Origin: Candidatus Iainarchaeum sp.
GTDB taxonomy: Archaea > Iainarchaeota > Iainarchaeia > Iainarchaeales > Iainarchaeaceae
Length of the DNA: 37,530 nt
NCBI GenBank assembly: GCA_016202305.1
Contig: JACQPB010000022.1
Span: 1 to 37,530, forward strand
Direction of reading: 5' to 3'
This document shows, piece after piece, positions 1 to 37,317 of the stretch. Each line of letters starts with the position of its first letter. Within the stretch, counting starts at the first letter, position 1. A program made the position numbers and the translations under genes. The notes beneath the pieces are model-generated. The model worked only from the letters and a program-made list of their open reading frames with translations. It did no database searches and had not been told where the DNA came from.

Positions 1-454
1 ACAGAACAAGGACTGCAACGTTGAGTTTCGCGCTCTGCTCTTTTGTTAGGCCCGTGTTGCGGGGCCTGAATCGACAGAACAAGGACTGCAACTGTTCGCG
101 CTGGAAAGTGTGGCGTTTCTGACTGTGGTTGCGGGGCCTGAATCGACAGAACAAGGACTGCAACATTTCGCTCGCGCTCAAGTTGTAGTCGAATATTTTT
201 GTTGCGGGGCCTGAATCGACAGAACAAGGACTGCAACTCGCCTAGTTGCGTATAAACAGTGTTATATGCAAAGTTGCGGGGCCTGAATCGACAGAACAAG
301 GACTGCAACTCAATTCCTTCTGCCGCACCCGCAACTTAAGGCTTTGTTGCGGGGCCTGAATCGACAGAACAAGGACTGCAACAACGACTATTGTATCTTC
401 ATCATTGTCGGTGAATTGTTGCGGGGCCTGAATCGACAGAACAAGGACTGCAAC
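1..454 (+). CRISPR. CRISPR array, type V-F (Cas12f)-like repeat
   Basis: Six complete identical 37-nt repeats (56-92, 128-164, 201-237, 273-309, 346-382, 418-454) follow a partial one (1-19), so the array continues left of the window. The six spacers are 35-36 nt and all different. The repeat begins GTTGCGGGGCCTGAATCGAC and ends AAGGACTGCAAC, with complementary ends (GTTGC/GCAAC). Compared from memory with the Cas12f1 (Cas14a1) repeat, about 27 of 37 positions match, including GTTGC, CC-GAAT-GAC and AAGGA-TGCAAC, in this orientation. That suggests crRNAs are read on the plus strand and the leader lies to the left. No effector or clear tracrRNA anti-repeat is visible here. The array is certain; the subtype is inferred from the repeat alone. 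Confidence 0.95.
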
Positions 455-732
455 TACTGTTGGCCAAAAATTACTGAATTTTGGGTAAATGCAACTTTGC
501 TTTTTACAAAGACTTGCCGCCCTTCTTTTCTTTTTGAAACTAATTCTAGGTGGTATAGCTCTGAAACATAGGTTGTACATTTAGTGTAAGCCAACTTGAG
601 TCTTTTGCTTAAGTCCGTGATTGTCATTTCGTTATTTCTAGTCAGCCAAAGAATGGCAAATCGTTTCTTTTTCCCCATTACCCTGAATATCTTGAATAAC
701 TTTTCATCAATAAGTAGCGGGTCTTTGTCCAT
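454..732 (-). CDS. Small winged-helix transcriptional regulator (ArsR-like)
   Basis: A 92-residue protein with the layout of an ArsR/MarR-like winged helix: a first helix (DEKLFKIFRVMGKKKRFAIL), a helix-turn-helix (MTITDLSKRLKLAYTKCTTYVSEL), and a basic wing (LVSKRKEGRQVFVKSK). It diverges from the mod-res-cas operon, and the 105-bp gap between them holds three palindromes, the first overlapping this start codon. Autoregulation and control of the operon are therefore likely, though only inferred. The last base of the final CRISPR repeat (454) is part of the stop codon, so gene and array abut with no gap and are convergent. The short tail may have been trimmed when the array arrived. Confidence 0.8.
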   Translation of the reverse strand: MDKDPLLIDEKLFKIFRVMGKKKRFAILWLTRNNEMTITDLSKRLKLAYTKCTTYVSELYHLELVSKRKEGRQVFVKSKVAFTQNSVIFGQQ

Positions 733-830
733 TTACCAAAAGTGGTTAACAGAATATTAAGGAATAGTTTACCTGTTTGGGTAAACCTTTTAATAGGGCG
801 ATACGTTATCAGTATACCAAAACTGGTAAG
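732..830. promoter_or_regulatory. Divergent promoter with three operator-like palindromes
   Basis: Three inverted repeats lie between the regulator and mod. Site 1 (732-749) is TTTACCA-AAAG-TGGTTAA and overlaps the regulator start codon. Site 2 (767-786) is GTTTACC-TGTTTG-GGTAAAC with perfect 7-bp arms. Site 3 (815-828) is TACCA-AAAC-TGGTA, ten bases before the mod ATG. Sites 1 and 3 share the core ACCAAAA(G/C)TGGT and all three share the half-site TACC/GGTA. This is the pattern expected for a dimeric winged-helix regulator; which protein binds is inferred from adjacency. Confidence 0.65.
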
Positions 831-837
831 GTATTCT

Positions 838-2394
838 ATGCCCGCACTTAATTGGATAGGAAAAGAGCAGGTCGTTAACCATGATAAAGAAGTTCCATTT
901 AGATTACTAAAAAAGGTAAAATCCATATCGGTAGGAGAAAATTCTCAAAATTTAATTATCCATGGAGATAACTTAGAAGCGCTTAAAGCCCTGATGCCAT
1001 ACTACTGCAACAAAATCAAATGTATTTATATTGACCCCCCATATAACACAGGCAACGAAGGATGGGTCTATAACGACAACGTAAACTCCACAAAAATAAA
1101 GCGATGGTTAGGGAAAGTGGTGGGGGGTGAAACAGAGGACCTATGCAGACACGACAAATGGCTCTGCATGATGTATCCGAGATTAAAACTTCTTAAAGAT
1201 TTGTTAAAGGAAAACGGCGCAATATTTGTTAGTATTGACGATGATGAAGCAGACCACGCTAGAGCATTACTGGATGAAATTTTTGGCAGGCAAAATTTTG
1301 TAGCGACGATTATTTGGCAAAAAAAGTTTTCACCACAAAGTGATGCAAAGTTTTTTTCCGATGTGCATGATTACATTTTAGTTTACTCGAAAAATATAAC
1401 TAACTTTAGAGTAAAACTTTTGCAAAGAAAAGAAAGCACAAATGCACGTTACCTAAATCTAGATAATGACCCACGAGGGCTGTGGATGTCAAGCGATTTT
1501 TCTGTAAAGACATATAGCAAAAAATATGATTATCCGATAACCACTCCGAGCGGTAAAATAGTAAAAGCAACAAAAGGTAGGTGCTGGGCTACCTCTAAAG
1601 AAAGATTCAAAGAATTTGTAAAAGATAATAGAATTTGGTTCGGAAAAAATTTAAACGGCGTGCCAAGACTGAAAAGATTTTTATCTGAAGTGAAAGAAGG
1701 CATTGTCCCTACAACGATTTGGTTTTACCAAGAAGTTGGGCATAATCAAGAAGCTAGGCAAGAGCTCAAAAAAATATTTAGAGGAAAAGAACTGCTATTT
1801 GACAACCCAAAACCAGTGAGATTGATAAAAAGAATCATCCAACTCGCCACAGATTCCGATGATTTAATTTTAGACTCATTTGTAGGTTCAGGAACTACTG
1901 GCCAAGCGGTTCTAGAATTGAACAAAGAAGATTCTGGAAACAGAAAATTTATTTTAGTGGAACTAGAAGATGCAGTAGCAAAAAATATTACGGCAGAACG
2001 CATCAAACGAGTAATTAAATCAGAAAAGCTCGATGTTGGATTTGAATTTTGTGAATTGGATAGGCCATTATTCAATTCTGAAGGAGAAATAGAAAATGAA
2101 TGCGTGTTTGAGCAACTAGCCACTTACATTTATTTCACTGAGACGCAAACCAACATAGACAAGAAACAAATAAACAAGAGCTACATTGGCTTATCGCCGG
2201 ATGAAATCAACGAGTATTACCTGATTTTCAAGGAAAAGCACAAAAACAAACTCACAAAGGAATTCCTGAAAAATCTCAAGAAAAGCACAAAGAGAAAAAT
2301 CGTGTATGCTGACTTCTGCCTGATAAGTCAAGACGAGCTCGACAAATACAATATAGAGTTCAAACAGATTCCTTACGAAATAAAGAGGTATTAA
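838..2394 (+). CDS. mod: Type III restriction-modification DNA methyltransferase (Mod)
   Basis: A 518-residue DNA adenine methyltransferase of the beta class: the catalytic DPPYNTG motif (residues 66-72) comes before the SAM-binding FVGSGTT motif (about 348-354), with the target-recognition region between them. In type III systems Mod recognises the site, methylates one strand to N6-methyladenine, and escorts Res. An in-frame GTG at 742 would add 32 residues but lies within operator site 1 and gives an unlikely N-terminus, so I chose the ATG at 838. The res ATG follows the stop by 2 nt. It is AT-rich relative to genes in the right half of the window. Motifs IV and I are intact, so it is probably active. 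Confidence 0.92.
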   Translation: MPALNWIGKEQVVNHDKEVPFRLLKKVKSISVGENSQNLIIHGDNLEALKALMPYYCNKIKCIYIDPPYNTGNEGWVYNDNVNSTKIKRWLGKVVGGETEDLCRHDKWLCMMYPRLKLLKDLLKENGAIFVSIDDDEADHARALLDEIFGRQNFVATIIWQKKFSPQSDAKFFSDVHDYILVYSKNITNFRVKLLQRKESTNARYLNLDNDPRGLWMSSDFSVKTYSKKYDYPITTPSGKIVKATKGRCWATSKERFKEFVKDNRIWFGKNLNGVPRLKRFLSEVKEGIVPTTIWFYQEVGHNQEARQELKKIFRGKELLFDNPKPVRLIKRIIQLATDSDDLILDSFVGSGTTGQAVLELNKEDSGNRKFILVELEDAVAKNITAERIKRVIKSEKLDVGFEFCELDRPLFNSEGEIENECVFEQLATYIYFTETQTNIDKKQINKSYIGLSPDEINEYYLIFKEKHKNKLTKEFLKNLKKSTKRKIVYADFCLISQDELDKYNIEFKQIPYEIKRY

Positions 2395-2396
2395 CC

Positions 2397-4691
2397 ATGG
2401 AACTCAAACAATATCAACAAAAGACTATAGAAAAACTAAAAGAATATTTAGCAAGGATAAAGACACTAAAAGGAGATTACGAGACTGCATTCCTTTCAAT
2501 AATGAACAGAGAAAGTGAACAAGGTGTAAAATACAATGACTCCTTCAACGTACCGTTTGTCTGTGTAAAGATTCCGACGGGCGGAGGAAAAACCTTAGTT
2601 GCAAGCTACTCGATTACAGAAATAATAAGTAATTACTTGCAAGAAAAACTTGACAAGGGCATCATTGTCTGGTTTGTTCCGTCAGATGAGATAAAATCAC
2701 AAACCCTAAGAAAATTGAAAGACAAAAAAGACATGCATCGGACAGTGTTAGATAACGCTTTTGAAAATAACATAAAGATTTTTTCAAACGAAGAAGCCCT
2801 ACTGATTAGAAAGCATGACGTTGAAGACAACCTTTGCATAATAGTTGCAAGCCTCGATGCTTTTAGAAAAGATTCTAAGCTCAGAAACAAATACAAGGTT
2901 TATCAGGAAAACGGGGAATTATTGCAATTCTTTGAGGAAGCTACAAACGATTCAAAATTAGAGAAGGACGAAACTGGAGTAATAACCTCTTTGGCAAATG
3001 TAATCCGGTTGTACAATCCGTTAATTGTGATTGATGAGGGCCATAGAACTAAAACAAAAATTTCAATAGATTTCCTAAAAGACCTCAATCCAAGTTTTGT
3101 AATAGAATATACTGCAACTCCAAGGGAAGGCAGCAATATTCTAGTGGATATCCGTTCACAGGAGTTGAAAAGGGAACAAATGGTAAAAATTCCATTAGTA
3201 CTCGAAAGCAAGCGGGATTGGAGAGAAGTCGTAGATGATGGTTTTGTCCAAAGACAAACATTGGAGGAAATTGCAAAACATGGTGCAGAGTCAATAAGGC
3301 CAATTGCCCTCTACCAGGCAGAAGCTGATAGGAAAGAAACAGAATCCATTACGTTTGAAAAAATAAAGGAATATCTCAGAAAGGAAAAGAAGGTTACTGA
3401 GGAAGAAATAGCAATCAAAATATCTGGAAAAAATGAATTAGAGGGGGTGGACTTATTCAGTAAAAAGTGTAAAATCCGCCACATAATAACAATAAACGCT
3501 CTTGCTGAAGGGTGGGACTGTTCCTTTGCCTATGTTTTGGTTTCCGTTGCAAACCTCGGCTCTAAAATAGCTGTTGAACAGATAATAGGCAGAATAATCA
3601 GAATGCCATTTGCACAGAAAAGGAAAGATGAAAACCTGAACAAGTCTTATGTATTTGCTTCGGCAAAAAACTTCCAAGACGCGGCAGACCAAATCATTAA
3701 AGGCCTCGAAGATAACGGTTACAGCAAAAACGATTTGGTAAATATAACCCAAAAAGATGAAAGTGACTATTTCAAAGCCAAGAAACGGTTCAAAGACGAA
3801 CTCAAAATACCAGTTTTTGCCTTTGAGGAAGAAAAGCTATCCTTCGGGGAGCACTTATTGGGCGAAGATTTTGAACTGGCAAAACAAGACCACAAAATAC
3901 AGTTCGCTTTACCGTTAAGTGAGGATGGAAAAGGCGAAATAGATATTACCGAAGAAGGCAATTGGAAGAAAGGAATGGTAAAGCAATTGAGACTCAGCTA
4001 TGGGCGAAAAGAACAAAACACGGATGAAAAAATACTCACTTTGTGGCTGGACGACAAAATAAGGGCAAAGGAACTTGAAAGAAAAGATAAGCTCATTTTC
4101 ATAAACAAAATCGTCAAAGACCAGCTAAAAGAGCATACAATGCGGGCGCTATCATTGAATAGGCATCCATTAAGGGAAGCAATAAACGATAAGATAACGG
4201 AAATAATCGAAAGCTATGCGCAAAAGCAATTTGAAAAATTTGTGGAAAATGGGAAAATTACGCTTAAAGAATTCAATGCATTCCCAAAAGAAATAGAGCT
4301 TGTAACTGAAGTAAATCAGGATTACAAGAAAAGCTATTATGATAAAATAGAAAAACTCAACAAGGAAGAAAAAAATCTACTCGATAAACTCGACTTGGAC
4401 GAGTTAACCAACATAAGATTTTGGGTAAGGTGTAGAGAAAAGCAGGATGACTCACTCGCCCTGCAAGGCTGGAAAAGAAACAAATATTACCCAGACTTTG
4501 CCGCAGTAACCACCAACGGCACAATTATAGGCATCGAATGGAAAGGAGAAGACCGACTCACCAATGAAGACACCCAATACAAAGAAGCCTTGGGAAAGCA
4601 GTGGGAAAAGCTTGGAAAAGGCAAAACAAAATTTTACCTGGCCTCAAAGCAAAACATCGAAGAAGTCCTAAAGAAAATCAAGGAATTGTAG
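2397..4691 (+). CDS. res: Type III restriction enzyme Res subunit (SF2 helicase-nuclease)
   Basis: A 764-residue SF2 ATPase with a C-terminal nuclease. Walker A is PTGGGKT (60-66), motif II is DEGH (213-216), motif VI is EQIIGRIIRMP, and a PD-(D/E)xK nuclease sits at the end (PD 699-700, EWK 714-716). With Mod it forms a type III enzyme that translocates or diffuses along unmodified DNA and cuts near the recognition site. It is shorter than many Res proteins (often 850-1000 residues), but both active centres are present. It lies 2 nt after mod and 9 nt before cas1, so it is almost certainly cotranscribed with the CRISPR adaptation genes. That placement is unusual and is discussed under findings. 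Confidence 0.92.
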   Translation: MELKQYQQKTIEKLKEYLARIKTLKGDYETAFLSIMNRESEQGVKYNDSFNVPFVCVKIPTGGGKTLVASYSITEIISNYLQEKLDKGIIVWFVPSDEIKSQTLRKLKDKKDMHRTVLDNAFENNIKIFSNEEALLIRKHDVEDNLCIIVASLDAFRKDSKLRNKYKVYQENGELLQFFEEATNDSKLEKDETGVITSLANVIRLYNPLIVIDEGHRTKTKISIDFLKDLNPSFVIEYTATPREGSNILVDIRSQELKREQMVKIPLVLESKRDWREVVDDGFVQRQTLEEIAKHGAESIRPIALYQAEADRKETESITFEKIKEYLRKEKKVTEEEIAIKISGKNELEGVDLFSKKCKIRHIITINALAEGWDCSFAYVLVSVANLGSKIAVEQIIGRIIRMPFAQKRKDENLNKSYVFASAKNFQDAADQIIKGLEDNGYSKNDLVNITQKDESDYFKAKKRFKDELKIPVFAFEEEKLSFGEHLLGEDFELAKQDHKIQFALPLSEDGKGEIDITEEGNWKKGMVKQLRLSYGRKEQNTDEKILTLWLDDKIRAKELERKDKLIFINKIVKDQLKEHTMRALSLNRHPLREAINDKITEIIESYAQKQFEKFVENGKITLKEFNAFPKEIELVTEVNQDYKKSYYDKIEKLNKEEKNLLDKLDLDELTNIRFWVRCREKQDDSLALQGWKRNKYYPDFAAVTTNGTIIGIEWKGEDRLTNEDTQYKEALGKQWEKLGKGKTKFYLASKQNIEEVLKKIKEL

Positions 4692-4700
4692 GGTGAGAAA

Positions 4701-5690
4701 ATGCAGATAATCCTAAACGACTACTCAAGCTTTCTTGGCAAAAAAGGTGAGAGATTCACAATAAAGACCGGGGACAAAAAACAGGAATATGCGGTAAAAG
4801 ATGTTGACCAAATACTCATTGCCGCTGCCTCCAGTGTTTCGGTTGGGGCAATAAAATTTGCCCTGAAAAATGAAATTGATATTGTTTTCCTCAATTCAAT
4901 AGGGCGCCCGCTTGGGCGAGTATTTCCATGCAAGCTCGGCGGCACTACTCTTACCAGAAAAAGGCAATTAGAAGCCTATTACACGCCTAGAGCTGCTAAA
5001 ATTGCTAAAGAGCTTGTAAAAGCAAAAATTGTGAATCAAGCCTACTTCTTAAAATCTCTCTCCAAATCAAGGAAACAAGATTTTACTGAAATCGCTAATT
5101 CAAATATAGAAGTAAGCAAAAGAATAGACTCTTTGACTGGAAATGTTGATTTCATGCGCCAAGAACTTCTCGGCATAGAAGGGGTGACAGCTAGCAACTA
5201 CTTTGGATGCCTCACAAAAATACTGCCATTCAAAGGTAGAGACAAGGATTCGCAAGACCACGTAAACATTCTGCTCAATTACGGATACGGGATACTTTAC
5301 AACCAAACCGAAAAAACTTGTGTGTTGGCGGGACTGGACCCGTATCTTGGATTCATGCACACTGACAGGTACAATAAGCCGTCTATGGTTCTGGACATGA
5401 TTGAAGGCTTTAGGCCAATAATAGTTGACCGGGCAATTGTAACCCTGTTTGCACAAAAACAAGTGAATGGAAAAATGTTCCAAGAGCACCCCGAAGACAA
5501 GCAATTAATCCTGACAAAAGAAGGCCGGGAAAAAATAATTTCAGCGATAATGGAACGACTTTACACAAAAGTAAGTTTTAAGGGAAAACAAACAAGTTTT
5601 GACGATATTATGCTAGGCCAAGCTCGTAGAGTGGCAAATTACCTGCTTGATGAAAACAAGGGGTTCGAGGCTTTTGTCTACCGCTGGTGA
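4701..5690 (+). CDS. cas1: CRISPR integrase Cas1
   Basis: Cas1, 329 residues, the metal-dependent integrase that inserts new spacers as a Cas1-Cas2 complex. The family's catalytic triad is visible: Glu160 (GIEGVTASNYF), His220 (YLGFMHTD) and Asp232 (VLDMIEGFRP). The beta-rich N-terminal domain (1 to about 85) and the helical catalytic domain are both complete. The start ATG is 9 nt after res, and the stop overlaps an alternative GTG start of cas2. The tight spacing with mod-res on one side and cas2-cas4 on the other makes this one transcription unit. With an intact triad it should be able to acquire spacers. Confidence 0.95.
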   Translation: MQIILNDYSSFLGKKGERFTIKTGDKKQEYAVKDVDQILIAAASSVSVGAIKFALKNEIDIVFLNSIGRPLGRVFPCKLGGTTLTRKRQLEAYYTPRAAKIAKELVKAKIVNQAYFLKSLSKSRKQDFTEIANSNIEVSKRIDSLTGNVDFMRQELLGIEGVTASNYFGCLTKILPFKGRDKDSQDHVNILLNYGYGILYNQTEKTCVLAGLDPYLGFMHTDRYNKPSMVLDMIEGFRPIIVDRAIVTLFAQKQVNGKMFQEHPEDKQLILTKEGREKIISAIMERLYTKVSFKGKQTSFDDIMLGQARRVANYLLDENKGFEAFVYRW

Positions 5691-5695
5691 AAACA

Positions 5696-5980
5696 ATGAT
5701 TTACTTTGTAATCTACGATATCACTTCAAATTCAAAAAGGCAAAAAGTCTCCGAACAATGCAAAAACTTTGGCTTAAAAAGAATACAAAAAAGCGCCTTC
5801 TGCGGCCCTCTGACAAAAAACCTCGCCGAAATGCTTGGCATCAAATGCAAAGAAATTATTGAAGCCAAGGATTGTGTTTTTGTGATTCCTGCCTGCACAA
5901 ACTGCTTTAAAGCAAAAATAATTGTTGGCGAATTTGACGAGTCAAAATTTGAAGACAAAGACTTTGAAATAGTTGATTGA
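5696..5980 (+). CDS. cas2: CRISPR adaptation protein Cas2
   Basis: Cas2, 94 residues, the small ferredoxin-fold dimer that bridges two Cas1 dimers in spacer integration. The N-terminus MIYFVIYDI is the family's first beta strand with its conserved Asp in YDI. The ATG at 5696 gives this standard start; a GTG at 5687 overlapping the cas1 stop would add three residues. The cas4 ATG follows the stop by 1 nt. A pair of Cys near the C-terminus (PACTNC) is unusual but does not touch the fold. Confidence 0.93.
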   Translation: MIYFVIYDITSNSKRQKVSEQCKNFGLKRIQKSAFCGPLTKNLAEMLGIKCKEIIEAKDCVFVIPACTNCFKAKIIVGEFDESKFEDKDFEIVD

Positions 5981-5981
5981 A

Positions 5982-6572
5982 ATGGACAACCAAGGCTACC
6001 TCACAATCAAGGACTTAATGAATTATCATTACTGTAACAGACTGATTTACTTTGAAAACGTCCTTCGAATACCGCAAGCCACCACAATAAAAGAATACAA
6101 AGGAAGGGAACTGCACCAATCGTTTACAGAAAAATCCAAGAGAAACAAAATAGTGAAAGAATTTCCCAAACTTCCAAAAAAGTATAATCTGCAACTTCAG
6201 TCTCCGGAGATTAATTTCAGGACCATTTTGGACTGCCTTATTATTGATAAACAAAAAAATCAGGCTTTCCCAATTGAATACAAGGATGCAAAAAAGCCGG
6301 AGAAAATATACAATACCTTCAAAATCCAGTTATTCGCAGAGAGCTTGCTGGTCAAAGAACAACTCAATTATGACGTGCCTGCCGCATTCATAAAATTTGA
6401 ACAAACAGGCGACCTTGTAAAACTAGAAGTTACAGACTCGGAGCTCGGACAAGTCAAAGAAACGATAAAACAAATCAACCTAATAATAGACACAGAAGCT
6501 ATGCCAGAACCAACAGAATTCGTGAAAAGATGCAAAGACTGCTGCTATTGGAAAATATGTAAAAGGGCATAA
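5982..6572 (+). CDS. cas4: CRISPR-associated exonuclease Cas4
   Basis: Cas4, 196 residues, a RecB-type PD-(D/E)xK nuclease with an iron-sulfur cluster that trims prespacers and helps select PAM-proximal ends. Visible nuclease residues are His45 (GRELH), Asp84 (ILDCLI), and Glu99/Lys101 (IEYKDAK). The four cluster cysteines are Cys18 (YHYCNR) and the C-terminal set Cys184, Cys187 or 188, and Cys193 (RCKDCCYWKIC). The ATG at 5982 was chosen over an upstream TTG inside cas2. It is the last gene of the operon; a convergent gene ends 5 nt away. cas1-cas2-cas4 next to a Cas12f-type array fits the published layout of Cas14 loci. Confidence 0.93.
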   Translation: MDNQGYLTIKDLMNYHYCNRLIYFENVLRIPQATTIKEYKGRELHQSFTEKSKRNKIVKEFPKLPKKYNLQLQSPEINFRTILDCLIIDKQKNQAFPIEYKDAKKPEKIYNTFKIQLFAESLLVKEQLNYDVPAAFIKFEQTGDLVKLEVTDSELGQVKETIKQINLIIDTEAMPEPTEFVKRCKDCCYWKICKRA

Positions 6573-7380: not shown

Positions 7381-7472
7381 GGCAAAAGAGTTTTTGAGAA
7401 AAAAGGTTGAGGGGTGAACCCAATGCAAGACTGGCGAATCCGCAATTTTTTATGAAAAATGTTAAAACGAAG

Positions 7473-7481
7473 AAATAAATA
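7473..7481 (+). promoter_or_regulatory. TATA box for the 7504 gene
   Basis: AAATAAATA centred about 27 nt before the ATG at 7504, the spacing of an archaeal TATA box to a leaderless transcript. This favours 7504 over the upstream ATG at 7459 as the start. Confidence 0.45.
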
Positions 7482-7503
7482 CAAAAGCCACGTTAATTTT
7501 CAC

Positions 7504-8058
7504 ATGGCGTTCAGAGTAAAGAGGGGAAGTGTAAGAGTCACTCCAAGCGCTGTTGCCAGAAGGCCTTTGAAGACGATTCAACAGCGGCTAGGGATTGTTG
7601 AAACGAAACGGGAAACGCGACCAAAAAAGGGCTTGCGGGCAGAGGAAGAAAGAAGAGAGTTTAGGCGCAGGCCCCGGCAGACGCACGAAAATAATTTCAC
7701 CGAAAAGGACATCAAAGACGTGCATGATGGAAAATTATTTTTCAAGCATTATGTCAATTCGGAGGCATTATTGCCAGAAACACGAGTTGCCTTAAATGCG
7801 CTCCTGCCTGCAATTACCCGATTCAAATCCCTGCTCCAAGCACAAGTGCCAGCCATAAGAAACCCTGATTATCCACCAGACCGAGTAATAGAACAATACT
7901 TGCAGACCCCCCCCACAGAAATGTACCACGAAGCCTCAATATTGCAACTTCAACTCCAAATGGCAAGGCAGAAAATTGGCGGATTTGAGGATAGGCATGC
8001 CTATGGCATGATAAAAGACATCTGGATGCCACAAAAAATGCGAAAAACACAAGAGTAA
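7504..8058 (+). CDS. Hypothetical basic protein, 184 residues
   Basis: No family recognised. The first 70 residues are strongly basic and apparently disordered (MAFRVKRGSVRVTP... EEERREFRRRPRQ). The rest looks helical (LFFKHYVNSEALLPETRVALNALLPAITRFKSLLQA and YHEASILQLQLQMARQKIGG). The ATG at 7504 was chosen from the TATA spacing; ATG 7459 would add 15 more basic residues. It is the first of four consecutive plus-strand genes of unknown function, all Arg/Lys-rich, between the CRISPR operon and the integrase. A nucleic-acid-binding or structural role in the element is possible but not shown. Confidence 0.65.
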   Translation: MAFRVKRGSVRVTPSAVARRPLKTIQQRLGIVETKRETRPKKGLRAEEERREFRRRPRQTHENNFTEKDIKDVHDGKLFFKHYVNSEALLPETRVALNALLPAITRFKSLLQAQVPAIRNPDYPPDRVIEQYLQTPPTEMYHEASILQLQLQMARQKIGGFEDRHAYGMIKDIWMPQKMRKTQE

Positions 8059-8097
8059 AATGCACTCAGAGCAATTACCATCAGGAAGTGATTTTTT

Positions 8098-8403
8098 ATG
8101 GGCGGAAGCCAAGCAAGAAGAATCGGGCAAAGGAAAAGAATTCAGGCAGAAAACCAGGCGCAAAGAAGAGAAACAAGCCTATTCCTCAGAGCCCACGGCA
8201 TGACCTTGGAACAATACAGGCTGGCCAAGGAACTCAAGGCCCGGCGCCTCGACAAGGAACCTACCGAAGAACAAATGGCAAGAATGACTCCCGAAGAAAG
8301 GGCGACCTGGGAAAATTGGCAGGCACAACACAAACAAAAACCCGCCCCCGGATTCGCCAACATAAGCATCGTGGAAAAGAAGAGGCCGGAACAAAGGCCA
8401 TGA
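8098..8403 (+). CDS. Hypothetical protein, 101 residues
   Basis: No family recognised. A charged, mostly helical protein (QARRIGQRKRIQAENQAQRR, then MTLEQYRLAKELKARRL and PTEEQMARMTPEERATW). It starts 39 nt after the 7504 gene, and its stop overlaps the next gene's ATG as ATGA at 8400-8403. That coupling supports reality and cotranslation. The middle is rich in Glu/Gln/Arg repeats such as PTEEQMARMTPEE, a pattern seen in phage accessory proteins, but I can name no function. Confidence 0.65.
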   Translation: MGGSQARRIGQRKRIQAENQAQRRETSLFLRAHGMTLEQYRLAKELKARRLDKEPTEEQMARMTPEERATWENWQAQHKQKPAPGFANISIVEKKRPEQRP

Positions 8404-8888
8404 AACAAAAAACGGGTTTTTTTATGGACGAGCCAATAATCTTGCCAATCGGAGACGACGAGTTAGAACGAAGGCTACTTGAGATTAGGCAAAAGCACGA
8501 CATAAACGCCACGCTCCTCGTGAACCTCTTGAAAAGCCAAGAATTCACACGCCTCGCCAGTCAAGGGCTCGGCAAGCACGCAATGCGCAGGGCCAGAAGA
8601 ACGCTCACAGGAAGCTCAGCCACTTTCGGGTTCCTCTCGGAAATCATAGAACGGCACAAAGCCTCCTTAGCCGCCCGACACGACGACTACACCAACTCCA
8701 TACTGTCCAAACTTGACCCAAAGCAAAGAGATGCCTACCAAACCGGAAACTGGACACCCGAAATCTTGGAAGCGGTCAGCACTGCACAAAGAAAACACTT
8801 CCCCAAAAGGCCTCCCTCACCCGCAGAAATAGAAAAACGGGTTACATTCAAACCGCACGGCCAATACCGGCGCAGATGGAACAGGTAA
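8400..8888 (+). CDS. Hypothetical protein, 162 residues
   Basis: No family recognised. The ATG at 8400 overlaps the previous stop (ATGA); an internal ATG at 8424 is possible. The N-terminal half is acidic (EPIILPIGDDELERRLLEIRQ) and the rest basic and helical (RRARRTLTGSS, FLSEIIERHKASLAARHDDYTNSILSKLDPKQRDAY), ending with a basic tail. It sits 13 nt before the next gene. The longer frame open from 8088 is only overlap with the preceding gene and is not credible upstream of 8400. Confidence 0.65.
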   Translation: MKQKTGFFMDEPIILPIGDDELERRLLEIRQKHDINATLLVNLLKSQEFTRLASQGLGKHAMRRARRTLTGSSATFGFLSEIIERHKASLAARHDDYTNSILSKLDPKQRDAYQTGNWTPEILEAVSTAQRKHFPKRPPSPAEIEKRVTFKPHGQYRRRWNR

Positions 8889-8901
8889 AAAGTGACGCAA
8901 A

Positions 8902-9291
8902 ATGCCGAGACGTTTAAAACCCACTCTGAAACCCCATATCACTAGGTCAAGAAAGGCTTGGCTTAGAGAAGCAAATAAGGGAGCGCCATTTGACGTTAAT
9001 ATTGCAGGCGCTTCTTCGCTAGCAGAATTAGAGCTAAGAACCCGGCAAAGCATGGCCGGTGCGGGAACATTCACACTCATGCGCTCTAGGTTCAGACAAC
9101 GTGATGGGGAAATAAAGACCGTATTGCAATTGGCCTCAGAAACATTTCCAGGGTCCTTTTCCCCCAAACAGGTTTCAGGAGCAGCATGGTCTAATGAAGA
9201 AGCAGCCCAAATAGCAAGGGGCCTGAAAAGAGGATTCTGGGTAGACTTTATCCTAGGGAAATCAAAAGAACTTTACCACAGGTCATGGTAA
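8902..9291 (+). CDS. Hypothetical basic protein, 129 residues
   Basis: No family recognised. A basic N-terminus (MPRRLKPTLKPHITRSRKAWLREA) is followed by helices (SLAELELRTRQSMAGAGTF, KQVSGAAWSNEEAAQIARGLKRG). It is the last gene of the four-gene plus-strand cluster, 13 nt after its neighbour, and converges with the recombinase operon. The ORF is uninterrupted and keeps the codon style of its neighbours. Confidence 0.6.
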   Translation: MPRRLKPTLKPHITRSRKAWLREANKGAPFDVNIAGASSLAELELRTRQSMAGAGTFTLMRSRFRQRDGEIKTVLQLASETFPGSFSPKQVSGAAWSNEEAAQIARGLKRGFWVDFILGKSKELYHRSW

Positions 9292-9416: not shown

Positions 9417-9557
9417 TTATTTTGGCAAAGAAGTCCATATGAAGACTATCGTGCCGAATATGGCGAATAAGGCGATTGCCGCAAGCACGAGTATCATTAT
9501 GGGCTTCCAGTAGTTGGCTCCGATGAGAAACCATATAGCGTTGTTGTCTTTGCTCAT
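9417..9557 (-). CDS. Small single-pass membrane protein, 46 residues
   Basis: A 46-residue ORF, MSKDNNAIWFLIGANYWKPI followed by one long hydrophobic segment (about residues 19-41: IMILVLAAIALFAIFG...) and a short polar tail. Its ATG overlaps the stop of the recombinase gene (ATGA at 9554-9557), so it is translationally coupled to the integrase. The hydrophobic helix and the coupling together make it a likely gene. Function unknown; it may be a small accessory membrane protein of the element. Confidence 0.65.
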   Translation of the reverse strand: MSKDNNAIWFLIGANYWKPIMILVLAAIALFAIFGTIVFIWTSLPK

Positions 9558-10753
9558 GCCTGTGCGCCTCCTGTTTCGATTAGGCGTATTGTTTCGGCCA
9601 ATCTTTCGGGGTTATCGCGGTACTTGTTGATGAGTTTCATCAGGGCGATGATTCCTGTTTCCTCCTTTCTCTTGTTTTCCTCGGCTTCAACTGCGGCTTT
9701 TTGTGTGAGCGGCAGCCAGCATTGGTCACAGTGGGAATTGTTGGATTCGTTGAGTTTTTTGCACCGCGGACAAGAAACACGTTTGAGTATGTCTTCTTGC
9801 TTGTCCTCTTTTATGAGGCCGTGCATGCGCAGTATCGCATCGTCAACCTGCTTCCCGGATAGATGGACGTAGTTGGCGGCCATCTTGGATTCCTGCACCC
9901 AGCCAAAGTATTCTTTCAGTTGCGCCTCGGTCAAAAACTGAGCCATATAGGTGGCGCGGGAGTGCCGGAACTGGTGCGGATTCACAGGCTTTTTTACCCC
10001 TGCTTTTCGCGCCGAGACTTGGAGAATTTTAACTATGTTCCTGTGGAGCATCCTCTGGCCGAAATTGTCGTAGATGTTGAGGAATATTGGCGCGTTGGGG
10101 TCTTGGTTCATGGGGTGCTTGTTGAGCCATGCCAAGAGTTCAGAGGCTGCGTTGACTATGCGTATTCTCCTCATTCCTGTTTTGCCGTCAAGGCTTAGCT
10201 TGCAGCCCAATTCATCGAACGCGGCATCCTTTATGTCAAGGCCTCCTAGCTCGCCGATCCTTGCGCCTGTTTCCCAGAGCAATGCTATTAGCGCCTTGTC
10301 ACGCGGGGACGAGGTTGCGCCTAATAGCTTTTTCACATCCTCTTGTGTCAAGAGGTCTTCGGGTAGTTTCTTGGATTTCTTGCTATTGCACTTTATCCAT
10401 GACACGCATGGCGGGCATGTTTCTGACTTGGCAACCCACTTATGAAACACCTTGAGAACCTCGCCATAAGTCGAAATAGTGGCTGGACTGAGCTTTTTTT
10501 CCATCTGATGGAGCATAAAGTCCTCATAATCGACGCGCTCGACCTCCAAAAAGCTCTTCTTAACATAATCGACCACGAGCCTCAAAGTACCAAGCTGTTT
10601 GACCAGCCGAGGAATGGAAATGTTGTTGAGCTGGTTATGCCTATAGAACCCCAGCATCAGCTCCCGGTTCTCCTTGGAAATAGCCGGGTCCTCATTCAAA
10701 AGGCACAGCTCGCGCTCCAAAGACCGCTCATACGGATGAATATATTCCCTCAT
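9554..10753 (-). CDS. Tyrosine recombinase / integrase with C-terminal zinc ribbon
   Basis: A 399-residue site-specific recombinase of the XerC/D-phage integrase family. The N-terminal SAM-like core-binding domain is at about 35-110. Catalytic residues are Arg165 (ETGARIGELGG), Lys191, His260 and Arg263 (HQFRHS), Trp285 in the second His/Trp position, and the nucleophile Tyr295 (ANYVHLS). A zinc ribbon follows (Cys328, 331, 342, 345), as in many archaeal integrases. The ATG at 10753 has a good Shine-Dalgarno AAGGAGG; a TTG at 10774 overlaps it and is less likely. The gene starts 65 bp from the 3' end of tRNA-Ser(GCU), the classic layout of an element integrated into that tRNA. All catalytic residues are intact. 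Confidence 0.93.
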   Translation of the reverse strand: MREYIHPYERSLERELCLLNEDPAISKENRELMLGFYRHNQLNNISIPRLVKQLGTLRLVVDYVKKSFLEVERVDYEDFMLHQMEKKLSPATISTYGEVLKVFHKWVAKSETCPPCVSWIKCNSKKSKKLPEDLLTQEDVKKLLGATSSPRDKALIALLWETGARIGELGGLDIKDAAFDELGCKLSLDGKTGMRRIRIVNAASELLAWLNKHPMNQDPNAPIFLNIYDNFGQRMLHRNIVKILQVSARKAGVKKPVNPHQFRHSRATYMAQFLTEAQLKEYFGWVQESKMAANYVHLSGKQVDDAILRMHGLIKEDKQEDILKRVSCPRCKKLNESNNSHCDQCWLPLTQKAAVEAEENKRKEETGIIALMKLINKYRDNPERLAETIRLIETGGAQA

Positions 10754-10782
10754 AAATGGTTCCTCCTTACTCAACCGAAAAG

Positions 10783-10817: not shown

Positions 10818-10977
10818 CGCGGGGGACGGGATTTGAACCCGTGCACCCTTTCGAGTAACGGATAACTGCAACCAACGGATTTACATTTTTCTTTTCCGTC
10901 AACGCTTTTCTTTTTGTGTCAACAAAAAGAAAAGGGTTGTAGCAGTCCGCCGCATTAGACCACTCTGCCACCCCCGC
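10818..10977 (-). tRNA. tRNA-Ser(GCU) with a 76-nt intron
   Basis: Exon 1 is 10940-10977 and exon 2 is 10818-10863. The acceptor stem GCGGGGG/CCCCCGC with discriminator G, a variable arm ACTC-GAAA-GGGT and a T arm ACGGG-TTCAAAT-CCCGT identify a class II serine tRNA. The spliced anticodon loop reads CT-GCT-AA. Intron 10864-10939 is bounded by an ideal bulge-helix-bulge: the 4-bp helix CTGC/GCAG flanked by 3-nt bulges TAC and TTA, cut after two bases in each. CCA is not encoded. The 3' half is the likely attachment site for the adjacent integrase. Confidence 0.95.
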
Positions 10978-11622: not shown

Positions 11623-12645
11623 ATGGACTTCTGCGGAATCCGTGTCGACAGCCCTTTCTTCCTCGCGCCGATGGCTGCGATAACCTCGCTGCCTTTCAGG
11701 TTAATGTGCAGGAACCAGGGTGCGGGCCTCGTAATCACGGAGCAAATCAATGCGACGCAAATAGCGCGCAACCCCGACCCTTTCACTAACAACGAGTTTT
11801 TCACTGTGAAAACGGCCCCTGAGGAGAGGCCGGTAGGCGTGCAGCTGTTCGGGGCAGTCGAGAAGGACTTCATTGCGGCGGTTGATGCCGTCGAGCGGAA
11901 CTTCGAGCTCGTGAACATAAACTGCGGCTGCCCTTCGCACAAGGAGGTTTCGATTGGCGCGGGCGCGGCCCTGCTGAAGGAGCCTTCTAAAATAGCAGGC
12001 ATAGTGCGGACAATCAAGGGCGTGTCTTCGAGGCCGGTAACGGCAAAAATCCGCCTCGGATGGGAGGAAAACAGGAGCGTTGCTATTGCAAGGGAGATTG
12101 AGCGTGCCGGGGCTGATGCGATAATGGTCCACGGGAGGACGGCCACCCAGGGTTATTCAGGGATTGCCGACTGGGATGCCATAAGGAAGGTGCGTGAAGC
12201 TGTTTCCGTGCCTGTCGTGGCGAACGGTGACGCGAATTCCGGGGCGAAGGCCCTGCAGATGCTAGAAGCAACCATGTGTGATTTCGGCATGATAGGGAGG
12301 GCCGCGATGACGAACCCTTACATTTTCAGGGAGGCTAGGGAATTGCTGGAAAATTGTGCGGAGTGGAAGGCCTCGCCCTCAGACAAGATAAGTGGCTTCT
12401 TCGATTACTTGGGCGCGTGCGAGAGGCATGACATGGTGAAGCTCTCCGATTTGAAGCTCAAGGCCGTGCAGTTCACCAAGGGCATTGATTTCACGAAGCA
12501 GGTGCGCGTACAGCTTCAGGCGGCGGGCGACGTGGCAACGGTCAAGCGCATACTTGCGGGTTTTTTGCAGGAAACACTGCCAAGGGCGCAAAGCCACCCC
12601 ACGAGAAGTATACATAACATGCCGCGTGCGGCCAAGAGCGTGTGA
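11623..12645 (+). CDS. dus: tRNA-dihydrouridine synthase (Dus family)
   Basis: A 340-residue flavoprotein that reduces uridine to dihydrouridine in tRNA, using NADPH and FMN. The N-terminal TIM barrel starts with the typical FFLAPMAAITSLPFR. The catalytic cysteine is Cys103 in NINCGCPSHKEVSIGAGAALL. FMN-binding stretches (TAKIRLGW, IMVHGRT, VVANGD, GMIGRAAMTNPYIF) follow in family order, and the C-terminal helical tRNA-binding domain is present. Length is normal. It lies 11 nt behind a small coiled-coil gene. It is a chromosomal housekeeping gene and marks the flank of the integrated element. Confidence 0.93.
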   Translation: MDFCGIRVDSPFFLAPMAAITSLPFRLMCRNQGAGLVITEQINATQIARNPDPFTNNEFFTVKTAPEERPVGVQLFGAVEKDFIAAVDAVERNFELVNINCGCPSHKEVSIGAGAALLKEPSKIAGIVRTIKGVSSRPVTAKIRLGWEENRSVAIAREIERAGADAIMVHGRTATQGYSGIADWDAIRKVREAVSVPVVANGDANSGAKALQMLEATMCDFGMIGRAAMTNPYIFREARELLENCAEWKASPSDKISGFFDYLGACERHDMVKLSDLKLKAVQFTKGIDFTKQVRVQLQAAGDVATVKRILAGFLQETLPRAQSHPTRSIHNMPRAAKSV

Positions 12646-13010
12646 AGCACTTCATTTCCGGGAAAAAAAACTTGCAACGCCTGCCGCTTACTCCCCTTGC
12701 AGGAAATGGCCGGGCTTGGCATAGAGGCATGTATGTCCAAGAGGGCTGTGGGACAAACAGCCGGCTATTCCGCAAAATGAGGGGAAGCGGGGCAGACAAA
12801 AATTTATTAATGGCCAATGCGTCAATTAGGCGCTGGCCGAGAAAACCCTATGGGCTTTAGCCCGTAGATGAATTGAGGCTGTGGCACGGGGTTGTTAAGG
12901 GGAGCGGCCACGGAGTTTCCCTTAATTTGTTGTGCCGTTTTTGGTGTGTTTGCACCGGCAATGACCTCTCTCTCAGGGGGTTTATAAGTTTTGGCGCGGA
13001 CTTTTTCTGT
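12646..13010 (+). other. Intergenic stretch with hairpins and left end of TnpB element
   Basis: No convincing gene lies between dus and tnpB. It contains an AT box AAATTTATTAA (about 12800-12810), a strong hairpin GGCCA-AT-GCG...CGC-TGGCC (12812-12838), an 8-bp hairpin CTATGGGC-TTTA-GCCCGTAG (about 12849-12868) like the subterminal hairpins of IS200/IS605 elements, and a stem CTGTGGC/GCCACGG (about 12878-12914). The element's left end is probably near the second hairpin. The tnpB TATA box TTTATAA is at 12981-12987. Confidence 0.45.
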
Positions 13011-14219
13011 ATGTTGAGTTATGTGTTCAGGCTGTACCCTAACAGGGTTCAGGCGCTTGGTTTGGGGCGTTCGCTTGAGCTTTGCAGGCAGGCTTACAAT
13101 TTTCTCTTGGAAAAATTGAACCAGCAGTCACTATCCGGAAAAAATGATGTTGGAGTGGTAAAGCATAGTATTGTGGAATTGAAGAATGCGCGGCCTGAAT
13201 TCAATGAAGTTTATTCGAAGGCTTTGCAGCCTGAGTGTGACAGGCTTTTTTCGAATCTGCGCTCATTGAGGCAATTGAAGAAGAATGGGAAGAAGGTTGG
13301 CGCCTTGAGGTTCAAGGGAAAAGATTGGTTCAAGACATTTTCGTACAACCAGTCCGGCTTCAGGATTGAGATGGTGAAAAGCAAGAAAGGCATTTTGCAT
13401 TTGAGCAAAATCGGTAGCATAAAAATCAAGGTGCACAGGCCTGTCGAGGGGCGCATAAAACAGGTTACTTTGAAGAATCGCTTAGGCAAATGGTTCGCAA
13501 TCCTCATAACCGATGCCAATCCGAAGAGGGTGCATGGTGAGAAGGTTCTTGGCATTGACCTCGGAATCAACAATTACTTGGTGGATAGTGACGGGAATAG
13601 GGTTGCGCATCCGCATAACATTGACAAGCATGCGCAGCGCCTTGCGCTCGCGCAGAGGGATTTGGCGAGGAAGAATAAAGGGAGTGGCAACAGGAAAAAG
13701 GCGAGGTTGGCGGTCGCGAAGGTTCACGAAAAAATCGAGAGGTGTCGGAACGATTTTTTGCACAAGCTTTCCGCAAAATACGTGAAGGGCTGCAGAACCA
13801 TTGTTGTTGAGGATTTGGACATTGTCGGTATGGCGCGCTCCGCTCGGAATGCGCGGAATATAATGGATTCTTCTTGGGCAAGGTTTTTGCAAATGCTCGC
13901 ATACAAGGCTGCAAGCGCTGGTTGCGAGCTAGCAAAAGTAAACCCGAGAAACACCACGAAAACCTGCAGCAAGTGCGGAAACCTGAGAGAAATGCCTCTT
14001 TGGCAACGCATTTATAGTTGCGGCAATTGTGGCGTTGCAATGGATAGGGATTATAATTCCGCCATGAATATATTACATAGGTTTTTGGGCCGGGTGCCGG
14101 CCCTTGCAAGAGAATCACCCTCTACCCTTGTAGGGCAAGGCGGTTCGATGAAGCAAGAAACCACGTTTGTGGAGCGGTTGGCAGTGTCAAGTGACGCCAG
14201 CCCCTTCAGGGGCTGGTAG
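13011..14219 (+). CDS. tnpB: TnpB RNA-guided nuclease of an IS605-type element
   Basis: A 402-residue TnpB, the OmegaRNA-guided DNA nuclease of IS200/IS605 elements. The N-terminal part is the HTH/wedge region (SYVFRLYPNRVQALGLGRSLELCRQAYNFLL). The RuvC catalytic residues are all present: Asp183 (VLGIDLGINN), Glu267 (IVVEDLD) and Asp347 (MDRDYNSAMN). The zinc ribbon is Cys319, 322, 337 and 340. A TATA box (12981-12987) lies 26-30 nt before the ATG, so the message is probably leaderless. No TnpA transposase accompanies it, so the element cannot move alone. The frame is intact to the right end and gives a complete, presumably active nuclease. Confidence 0.93.
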   Translation: MLSYVFRLYPNRVQALGLGRSLELCRQAYNFLLEKLNQQSLSGKNDVGVVKHSIVELKNARPEFNEVYSKALQPECDRLFSNLRSLRQLKKNGKKVGALRFKGKDWFKTFSYNQSGFRIEMVKSKKGILHLSKIGSIKIKVHRPVEGRIKQVTLKNRLGKWFAILITDANPKRVHGEKVLGIDLGINNYLVDSDGNRVAHPHNIDKHAQRLALAQRDLARKNKGSGNRKKARLAVAKVHEKIERCRNDFLHKLSAKYVKGCRTIVVEDLDIVGMARSARNARNIMDSSWARFLQMLAYKAASAGCELAKVNPRNTTKTCSKCGNLREMPLWQRIYSCGNCGVAMDRDYNSAMNILHRFLGRVPALARESPSTLVGQGGSMKQETTFVERLAVSSDASPFRGW

Positions 14220-15599: not shown

Positions 15600-15728
15600 T
15601 GCTGGCACCTCTCCGAAAACAAAGGAAAATTATTCTGCACGGAACAATTTAAAAAAAGAAGAGGGCAATTGTTGCATTGTGCTGAATACGCCGCAATAAA
15701 AATCGTACGGATATCAAAAATCTGGCAC

Positions 15729-15828
15729 CCTATTAAGTTAGGAATCACAACAATCGACATAATTTTTAAATTTTTAGGAAGAAAAATCAAATTAATTACA
15801 TTAATAGGTTTATTTTCCGAACCTATTA
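15729..15828. promoter_or_regulatory. Operator-like repeats upstream of the ribonucleotide reductase gene
   Basis: A perfect 9-bp inverted repeat TAATAGGTT-(9 nt)-AACCTATTA lies at 15802-15828, about 17-20 bp before the TATA box. The same half-site CCTATTA recurs at 15729-15735, within CCTATTAAGTTAGG. Three copies of one half-site just upstream of the promoter suggest a repressor or activator site. The binding protein is unknown; NrdR is one candidate by function only. Confidence 0.5.
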
Positions 15829-15844
15829 GGTGTCCGACTAAAGC

Positions 15845-15986
15845 TTTTTATATGCGGAGCTGGTTTAGATTAATTCCTGAAAAACAACCGTTTCGGCGGT
15901 TGGGAGCGACGGCTATCTCAGCTTGGGCCGAGATAGGCCATATAATGAATATTACTATGAAAAAAATGTTTTATGGGGGAATAGGC
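15845..15986 (+). promoter_or_regulatory. Promoter and structured 5' leader of the ribonucleotide reductase gene
   Basis: The TATA box TTTTTATATG (about 15845-15854) predicts transcription from about 15872, giving a leader of some 115 nt, long for an archaeon. It holds two hairpins: CAACCG-TTTCGG-CGGTTG (15885-15902) and GGCTATCTC...GAGATAGGCC (15911-15939, stem about 9 bp with one bulge). A run GGGGGA lies 6 nt before the ATG at 15987. It does not look like a known cobalamin riboswitch to me, but the layout fits a cis-regulatory RNA. Confidence 0.5.
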
Positions 15987-18900
15987 ATGTCTGTAAAGAA
16001 GGCGGTTGCGCACGGGGAGCAAAAAACGAAGAAGGCGGACAAGGGGCTTGCAATACCCCGCATTTTCACGCAAAAGGGCCGTGACCCGCTTGATGCGGTG
16101 GAATACGAGTACAGGACCTCGTCCATAAAAAACCCTGACGGAAGCCTCGTGTTCGAGATGAAGGACATAGAAATCCCCAGGCAGTGGAGCCAGATTGCCA
16201 CGGACATAATAGCGCAGAAGTATTTCAGGAAAGCGGGGGTGCCGCAGTTCGACAGGCGCGGGAGCCCTGTCATGGACGCCGGTGGCAAGCAGAAACTCGG
16301 CCCTGAGACGTCGGCGAGGCAGGTCGTTTCTAGGCTTGCGGAGACATGGAGATGGTGGGGCGAGAAATACGGGTATTTCGCCTCGGCGGAGGACGCCGGC
16401 GCCTTCGAGGACGAGCTCAAGTTCATGCTCATAAACCAGTATGCCGCTCCCAACAGCCCGCAGTGGTTCAACACGGGCCTCTGCAATGCATACGGCATCA
16501 CGGGGCCGGCACAGGGGCACTACTTCGTGAACCCGGATACAGCGGAGCTGGAGAAGTCCGGCGACGCCTATTCTAGGGCGCAGGTGCACGCGTGCTTCAT
16601 ACAATCCCTCAGGGACGACCTCGTGAACGACGGCGGAATATTCGACCTTGCGACGCGCGAGGCAAGGATTTTCAAGTACGGCAGCGGCACCGGCACCAAC
16701 TTTTCCAGCCTCAGGGGGGAGGGAGAGCCGCTTTCCGGCGGCGGGTACAGCTCGGGCCTCATGTCATTCCTCAAGGTGCTCGACAGGGCCGCGGGCGCGA
16801 TAAAGTCAGGCGGAACCACCAGGAGGGCCGCGAAAATGGTTATACTCGACGTCGACCACCCTGACATAGAGAAGTTCGTGATGTGGAAGGTGCTCGAGGA
16901 GCAGAAGGTGGCCGCCATGGTCGCGGGAAGCAGGAGCTGCAGCTATTTCCTCAACGAGATAATGAAGACGGCCTACGAGGGAAAGTCAACCGATGTGAAG
17001 AAGAACGCTCAGCTCAAGCAGAGGATAAGGGAAGCGATGCGCGCCAACGTGCCGCCCAACTACATACTCAGGGTGCTGCAGCTCGCCGAGCAGGGAGAGA
17101 AGAGCCTCGATTTCCCGGCATTCGACACGAACTATAACTCTGAGGCGTATTCGACCGTGTCGGGCCAGAACTCGAACAATACCGTAAGGGTGACCAATTC
17201 GTTCATAGAGGCGGTGCTGAATGACGGTGATTGGCACCTCAAGAGGCGCACTGACGGAGCCACGGCAAAGACGGTAAAGTCGAGGGACCTCTGGGACAGG
17301 ATTGCGTACGCGGCATGGCACAGCGCGGACCCGGGCATACAGTTCGATGACACGATAAACGAGTGGCACACGTGCCCGAAGGAAGGAAAGATAAACGCGA
17401 GCAACCCATGCAGCGAGTACATGCACATCGACGACACGGCATGCAACCTGGCGTCCATCAACCTCATGCACTTCCTCGCGGAAAGCGGCGAGTTCAAGGC
17501 GGAGGAATTCAGGCACGCCACGAGGCTCTGGACAATCACCCTTGAGATAAGCGTCCTCATGGCGCAGTTCCCTTCAAAGGAAATAGCCCAGAAAAGCTAT
17601 AACCAGAGGACGCTCGGCCTCGGCTACGCGAACCTCGGCACCCTCCTCATGGTTTCCGGTATACCCTATGACTCTGAGGAAGGGCGCACAATCGCAGGCG
17701 CCATAACCGCGGTGATGTGCGGCGAATCCTATGCCACTTCCGCGGAAATGGCCGCCACCCTGGGCCCTTTCCCCACTTTCGCCGCGAACAGGCAGGACAT
17801 GCTGCGCGTGATAAGGAACCACAGGAATGCCGCGTACAACGCGAAGCCGTCTGATTATGAGGGCCTCACGGTAAAGCCCATCGGCATCAGCACGGAAAAA
17901 TGCCCCAAGAAGCTCCTCAGCGCAGCAAGGGACGCGTGGGACAGGGCCCTCACACTTGGCGAGAGGCACGGGTACAGGAATGCGCAGGTCACATGCATAG
18001 CGCCTACGGGTTGCCTGACAGGAAACTCGTTAGTGTCAACTGACCTTGGGCTGGTAAGGCTCACAGCTCTGGGAAACAGGGAAGGGGACAAGTGGCAGGA
18101 CGTTTCTTTTACAGCAATGACTGACGATGGGCCAAAGCAAGCAACCAAGTTTTACATCAACGGGGAAGCACAAACAAGGAAAATCAAGACAGCTTCGGGA
18201 TACGAAATTCAGGGAACGGAGAAACACAGGATAAAAGTCGTTGACCCCGAGAATAACAAGTTAATATGGAAAAGGCTTGACGAAATTCAAAAAGGGGACA
18301 GAATACCCCTGGCAATGGACACGATGTTTGGAAACCCTATGGAAGTATTGCTACCGCCACAGCCAGAATTGCATTGGAATACCGATTTCAAGTTAATTGT
18401 GCCCCGGGCAATGGATGAACAACTCTCGGAAGTTGTTGGTTATTTCATGGGCGATGGCAGTTTGCACAGCAAAGGATTGAGGTTCTGCGTTGACAATAAA
18501 GACGAGGACGTTGTTGACCGCCTAAGGAAGCTGATAAAAGAATTGTTTAATCTGGATGCCGCAACAACCCAACAGGAAGGATATAAAGAAGTTGCCGTAA
18601 ACTCTGTGCCTCTGACCCTGTGGTGGGAGGCATGCGGATTCTCCAAGATAAAACCATCCCCAGAACATAAGGGCAAGGGATATTCTCCGTATATTCCCGA
18701 TGCAATATTACATACAAACGACGGGAAAGTCTACGCTGCATTCTTGAGAGGATTGTTCGAGGCTGATGGCACCGTTACCACAGGTGGCCCAAGTTTTTCT
18801 ACAAGTAACTACTATTTTGCCCAGGAGATAAAAACATTACTCCTGGCTTTAGGCTTCCCTACTACCACAAAAATAGACACATCCGGATGGGGGAAATCAG

Positions 18901-37125: not shown

Positions 37126-37144
37126 ACTATACAGAATATAGTAT
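37124..37144 (-). promoter_or_regulatory. Palindromic operator at the RelA/SpoT gene start
   Basis: A perfect 8-bp inverted repeat ATACTATA-CAGAA-TATAGTAT that overlaps the start codon. It probably overlays the promoter (minus-strand TTTAAAAATTGTATAC just upstream), so a bound dimer would block transcription. Confidence 0.55.
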
Positions 37145-37156
37145 ACAATTTTTAAA

Positions 37157-37317
37157 TCTTCATTTTGGGCGGCTAGTATATTAAATTTATTTTGGCTATA
37201 AATAGTTAGATAATGCATATATTAGCTATTTTGACAATATAACGAAAATTGATAAAAGTCCAATTCTTCATTTTGGGCGGCTAGACTGCTCATATATTAC
37301 CTTTATTTTGACTATTT
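37157..37317. repeat. Imperfect direct repeat of about 45-50 bp (two copies)
   Basis: Copies at about 37157-37200 and 37265-37317 share an exact 20-bp block (TCTTCATTTTGGGCGGC, then TAG; 37157-37176 and 37265-37284) and, past an 8-nt indel, TATATTA and TTTATTTTG with few changes. The right copy is the 3' end of the truncated gene 37268-37425. The left copy lies just upstream of the RelA/SpoT gene. Confidence 0.7.

What the first reader, a model, noticed from the sequence alone, without database searches (positions are those of the whole stretch)
838..6572. Type III restriction-modification genes fused into the CRISPR adaptation operon
mod, res, cas1, cas2 and cas4 follow each other with gaps of 2, 9, 5 and 1 nt on one strand. 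A type III RM system is normally a separate locus. Cotranscription suggests coordinated defence: Res cleavage of unmodified invading DNA could make free ends that Cas4-Cas1-Cas2 capture as spacers, while Mod protects self DNA from both cutting and acquisition. This functional link is my inference; the gene order is seen directly. I know of no described system with this exact arrangement.
Basis: partly seen in the sequence, partly recalled or inferred. Interest (0 to 1): 0.88.

Follow-up and report, generated by a model that had tools for sequence, protein, structure and literature searches.

The report
Restriction cassette spliced before CRISPR genes
In one uncultivated archaeon, a mobile restriction-modification gene pair with its own repressor gene sits between a CRISPR array and the CRISPR memory-making genes, so the two immune systems are probably transcribed together; no relative examined shares this, so a working link between them remains unproven.

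Summary
The gene order is real: mod (838-2394), res (2397-4691), cas1 (4701-5690), cas2 (5696-5980) and cas4 (5982-6572), with gaps of 2, 9, 5 and 1 nt, intact motifs, and a CRISPR array (1-454) just upstream. The two nearest Cas1 relatives (68% identity, same order) have the array directly before cas1-cas2-cas4 and no mod-res. All 40 nearest Res relatives in GTDB contigs have no cas1/2/4 within up to 10 kb and nearly all sit beside mod. No second case turned up in the archaeal genomes compared for both genes or in viral contigs. A divergent winged-helix gene (454-732) faces mod across 105 bp that hold the only three WWACC-N6-GGTWW palindromes in the 37.5 kb window; no promoter-like sequence precedes cas1. 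Best reading: a regulated type III RM cassette landed in a CRISPR locus, probably within a tRNA-linked, low-GC island, and placed the adaptation genes under RM control. Co-transcription is likely but unproven. Res cuts feeding spacer capture is plausible, with a precedent for restriction cleavage and type II CRISPR-Cas, but untested here, and lack of conservation argues against an evolved joint system. An unusual, apparently one-off defence-island arrangement made of known parts.

The parts
1..454 (+). CRISPR array, 7 repeats of 37 nt (first cut by contig end), spacers 35-36 nt; repeat orientation (compared with G150) suggests transcription left to right, so the old (trailer) end faces mod
454..732 (-). 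winged-helix (ArsR-like) regulator, 92 aa, divergent from mod; its stop codon overlaps the last base of the last repeat
   Evidence: weak Pfam HTH hits, NCBIfam HTH_metalloreg E 2e-9 (below curated cut-off), weak PADLOC Csa3 hit
733..748 (.). palindrome TTACCAAAAGTGGTTA at the regulator start: predicted operator 1
769..784 (.). palindrome TTACCTGTTTGGGTAA: predicted operator 2
788..795 (+). TATA-like box TTTTAATA, predicted promoter of mod
   Evidence: inference
814..829 (.). palindrome ATACCAAAACTGGTAA, about 25 bp after the TATA-like box: predicted operator 3 over the mod start site
838..2394 (+). mod: type III beta-class DNA methyltransferase, 518 aa
   Evidence: PADLOC MTase_III E 2e-186; PDB 6k0w (Mod) E 1e-61, 4zcf (EcoP15I Mod) E 7e-48
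2397..4691 (+). res: type III restriction helicase-nuclease, 764 aa
   Evidence: PADLOC REase_III E 2e-84; Pfam ResIII; helicase motifs and C-terminal PDF..EWK
4701..5690 (+). cas1, 329 aa, Cas1b-like
   Evidence: Pfam E 3e-74; PADLOC Cas1b E 1e-96
5696..5980 (+). cas2, 94 aa
5982..6572 (+). cas4, 196 aa
9554..10774 (-). tyrosine integrase beside the 3' end of tRNA-Ser: possible edge of an integrated island
   Evidence: Pfam Phage_integrase E 1e-18
10818..10977 (-). intron-bearing tRNA-Ser, possible integration target
   Evidence: Rfam RF00005, 47 bits

Best explanation
A mobile, self-regulated type III restriction-modification cassette (winged-helix regulator, mod, res) landed between a CRISPR array and its cas1-cas2-cas4 genes, in place of the array-cas1 spacer seen in relatives. 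Shown: intact genes, tight same-strand packing, array directly before cas1 in the two nearest Cas1 loci, and mod-res without cas genes in all 40 nearest Res loci. Inferred: the regulator binds the three palindromes around the divergent start sites and represses itself and a mod-res-cas1-cas2-cas4 transcript, so the adaptation genes are now expressed together with the RM enzymes. The RM part most likely restricts unmethylated DNA by itself and Cas4-Cas1-Cas2 most likely adds spacers by itself; Res-made ends may raise spacer capture as a by-product, not as a dedicated pathway.
For: Exact gaps and intact motifs. G023 and G040 (Cas1 68%) have related 37-nt repeats ending about 100-170 nt before cas1-cas2-cas4 and no Res in the genome. 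40 of 40 nearest Res relatives, in archaea, CPR, Ignavibacteria, Bacteroidales and others, lack cas1/2/4 within up to 10 kb and nearly all lie next to mod. Mod/Res nearest relatives are a different, widely scattered set (Mod up to 67%, Res up to 57%) from the Cas1 relatives, so the two halves have separate histories. WWACC-N6-GGTWW occurs three times in 37.5 kb, all in the 105-bp wHTH-mod gap; none of 20,000 simulated 110-bp stretches had two (motif chosen after seeing the sequence). TATA-like box before mod, none found in the 200 bp before cas1. Block 457-6572 is about 35-41% GC against about 54% for most of the contig; integrase beside a tRNA gene.
Against: No transcript, binding or cleavage data. 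The regulator has no relative in any locus fetched, so it cannot be shown to travel with mod-res. No att repeat was found, so the island boundary is a guess. The other end of the array is missing from the MAG, and a mis-join of the contig cannot be tested. Shared low GC of mod-res and cas genes also fits joint arrival.
Confidence: 0.7

Rival explanations
1. A dedicated joint system: Res cuts unmodified invader DNA and the ends are passed to Cas4-Cas1-Cas2 from the same operon, while Mod shields self DNA from cutting and from spacer capture.
For: Tight operon with a predicted shared promoter; restriction cleavage stimulates type II CRISPR-Cas spacer acquisition (Maguin et al. 2022, cited in PMC13192584); a Cas4-like nuclease fused to UvrD recurs beside type III Mod-Res (PMC5704561).
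Against: Not conserved in any relative examined; mod-res relatives occur without cas genes nearby and cas relatives without mod-res.
Confidence: 0.17
2. Pure defence-island stacking: adjacency is accidental, cas1 has its own start site inside res, and there is neither shared control nor function.
For: Single occurrence; archaeal integrated elements are known to carry CRISPR arrays, some with cas genes, and RM genes (PMC6563490); integrase and tRNA nearby.
Against: 9-nt gap with a Shine-Dalgarno-like GGGTGAG and no TATA-like box found in the 200 bp before cas1, so shared transcription is the simpler reading.
Confidence: 0.1
3. Assembly artefact: two unrelated loci joined in a metagenome contig.
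For: Single MAG; the contig starts inside a repeat array; not seen elsewhere.
Against: No repeat family was listed across the res-cas1 junction; res and cas1 have similar low GC (37% and 41%); res ends in its normal stop and cas1 begins at its conserved start.
Confidence: 0.03

Closest known systems
Type III restriction-modification systems (Mod-Res, e.g. EcoP15I)
   Same: Mod and Res intact, in the usual mod-res order, gap 2 nt; Mod matches EcoP15I Mod and 6k0w Mod
   Different: Followed directly by cas1-cas2-cas4 and faced by a winged-helix gene not found beside the relatives
CRISPR adaptation module (cas1-cas2-cas4, Cas1b/Cas2b/Cas4b-like) with array, including stand-alone adaptation modules (PMC5704561)
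   Same: All three genes intact beside an array; same gene order in G023 and G040
   Different: mod-res and a regulator replace the array-cas1 spacer; effector genes not found, but the array side is cut off
UvrD-Cas4 fusion loci with type III Mod-Res (PMC5704561)
   Same: Cas4-family nuclease beside Mod-Res
   Different: Here a CRISPR-type Cas4 without UvrD, with Cas1, Cas2 and an array
Archaeal integrated mobile elements carrying CRISPR arrays and RM genes (PMC6563490)
   Same: Integrase, CRISPR and RM genes close together
   Different: In the passages read, CRISPR and RM are not described as one operon; boundaries of the present island are not proven

Membership tests
Type III restriction-modification | Beta-class Mod with motif IV (DPPY) before motif I (FxGSG) | tested here: met
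   DPPYNTG at residue 66, FVGSGTT at 348; PADLOC MTase_III E 2e-186
Type III restriction-modification | Res with SF2 helicase motifs and C-terminal PD-ExK nuclease | tested here: met
   PTGGGKT, DEGH, TATP, QIIGRIIR, PDF..EWK; PADLOC REase_III. By sequence, no solved Res structure matched
Type III restriction-modification | ATP-dependent cleavage 25-27 bp from paired sites | not testable with these tools
   needs biochemistry
CRISPR adaptation module | Cas1, Cas2, Cas4 with catalytic residues, next to an array | tested here: met
CRISPR adaptation module | Active spacer acquisition | not tested
   three spacers scanned by 24-mers against IMG/VR gave no exact match
Complete CRISPR-Cas system | Effector genes | tested here: inconclusive
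   none between cas4 and the integrase by Pfam; one Cas10/Csm1 model found nothing in the MAG; array side off contig
UvrD-Cas4 / Mod-Res defence locus | UvrD helicase fused to Cas4-like nuclease | tested here: not met
   Cas4 is 196 aa without a helicase
tRNA-integrated genomic island | Integrase beside a tRNA 3' end and an att duplication | tested here: inconclusive
   integrase and intact tRNA-Ser met; no second att copy in the window

The most novel reading that the evidence does not exclude
A single repressor-controlled operon in which an RM system and the CRISPR adaptation genes are switched on together, so that restriction fragments of unmethylated invaders are turned into spacers while methylated self DNA is spared.
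Probability: 0.17. Interest if true: 0.78.

Novelty: new variant of a known kind. Interest (0 to 1): 0.42.

Why it matters
It offers a natural case in which innate (restriction) and adaptive (CRISPR memory) immunity appear to share a promoter and a repressor. If the link works, it would show how self/non-self marking by methylation could steer spacer choice. Even if accidental, it illustrates how a mobile RM cassette can take over transcription of CRISPR adaptation genes.

Tried and rejected
Conservation of the block: rejected in the same order and phylum, in 30 Cas1-bearing genomes searched for Res, in 28 Res-bearing genome handles searched for Cas1, and in viral contigs. The Res profile was also run on 228 genomes (no hit, no positive control) and on 301 genomes of the phylum that holds Micrarchaeota (8 hits, carried into). 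att duplication: none. Regulator as a standard companion of mod-res: no relatives in the fetched loci. Spacer targets in IMG/VR: none for three 24-mers. Other end of the array in the MAG: none. Best-scoring plasmid and phage records: no record listed for Cas1 was also listed for Mod, only the best 60 rows of each plasmid search being seen.

Full report
What is there. The window is contig C7 of an archaeal MAG of 1.04 Mb, 79.7% complete. It is placed in Archaea because the genome of a named Micrarchaeota locus (L058 = G716) gives the same Cas1 place as G476, which is listed as 'same domain'. The five genes are present exactly as described, with gaps of 2, 9, 5 and 1 nt, and all carry their catalytic motifs. 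Upstream lie a CRISPR array of 7 repeats of 37 nt and a divergent winged-helix gene whose stop codon overlaps the last base of the last repeat.

Control region. The 105 bp between the winged-helix gene and mod hold three palindromes of the form WWACC-N6-GGTWW at 733, 769 and 814. This form occurs nowhere else in the 37.5 kb window, and none of 20,000 simulated 110-bp stretches had even two. The motif was defined after looking, so this is strong but not blind evidence. A TATA-like TTTTAATA at 788 lies about 25 bp before the third palindrome; no such box was found in the 200 bp before cas1, whose only upstream signal is a Shine-Dalgarno-like GGGTGAG in the 9-nt gap. I infer that the regulator represses itself and a mod-res-cas1-cas2-cas4 transcript. 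This is not shown.

Where the parts come from. The nearest Cas1 relatives, G023 and G040 (68% identity, same order), have an array directly before cas1-cas2-cas4 (about 170 nt in G023, about 100 nt in G040 after a degenerate last repeat) and no mod-res. Neither genome has a Res match. Their repeats are also 37-38 nt long and begin and end alike; by direct comparison the G023 repeat matches the window's at 27 of 37 positions (sequences). In contrast, the 40 nearest Res relatives, found in Woesearchaeota, Altiarchaeales, Micrarchaeota, CPR bacteria, Ignavibacteria, Bacteroidales and others, have no cas1, cas2 or cas4 within the up to 10 kb held on each side, and nearly all have mod just upstream. 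Some of those loci are short because the contig ends. So the cas half and the RM half have separate histories and meet here.

Search for a second case. Res was not near Cas1 in 30 Cas1-bearing genomes (the two cases on one contig are about 80 and 118 kb apart). Of 28 further Res-bearing genome handles, 6 matched the Cas1 family (two of these six, G476 and G716, are the same genome), none close to Res. Only one other Res match was found in viral contigs, and none for Cas1. The wider Res scans were of 28 genomes (one hit), 228 (no hit, so uninformative without a control) and 301 (eight hits). Metagenomes could not be searched.

Setting. The block 457-6572 is 35-41% GC while the contig from about 11.6 kb on is about 54-57%. 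A tyrosine integrase (9554-10774) abuts an intron-bearing tRNA-Ser (10818-10977). This suggests an integrated island, but no att duplication was found.

Function. RM and adaptation most likely work as they do elsewhere, now expressed together. Restriction cleavage stimulating CRISPR spacer acquisition is on record for a type II system (Maguin et al. 2022, read here only as cited in PMC13192584), and Cas4-like nucleases recur beside type III Mod-Res in UvrD-Cas4 loci (PMC5704561).

Verdict. Observation confirmed; interpretation partly supported. Known parts in a new order, seen once.

Noticed in passing
window 10818-10977 (-): tRNA-Ser gene interrupted by an intron; Rfam finds it, ARAGORN with default settings does not.
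   Followed up: partly
window 15669-20771 (+): Class II ribonucleotide reductase (1700 aa) carrying an intein with a LAGLIDADG domain.
   Followed up: no
window 12873-14219 (+) and 29069-30055 (+): TnpB-like OrfB (IS605) and an IS110-type transposase.
   Followed up: no
window 26172-29015 (+): TraG/PrgI-type P-loop ATPase, a conjugation-like gene.
   Followed up: no
window 36034-37218 (-): RelA/SpoT-domain protein in an archaeal contig.
   Followed up: no
L004 / G040:C89:355-1348: cas1 in this relative is split between two frames, so it may be a broken gene or a sequencing error.
   Followed up: no
L058 from about 12262 to 12511: In a Micrarchaeota contig, res is followed within about 200 bp by a tRNA-like 3' end at the contig edge; that genome also has a separate cas1-cas2-cas4 module (Cas1 46%).
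   Followed up: partly
window 7459-9291 (+): Three ORFs between cas4 and the integrase with no Pfam or PADLOC match.
   Followed up: no
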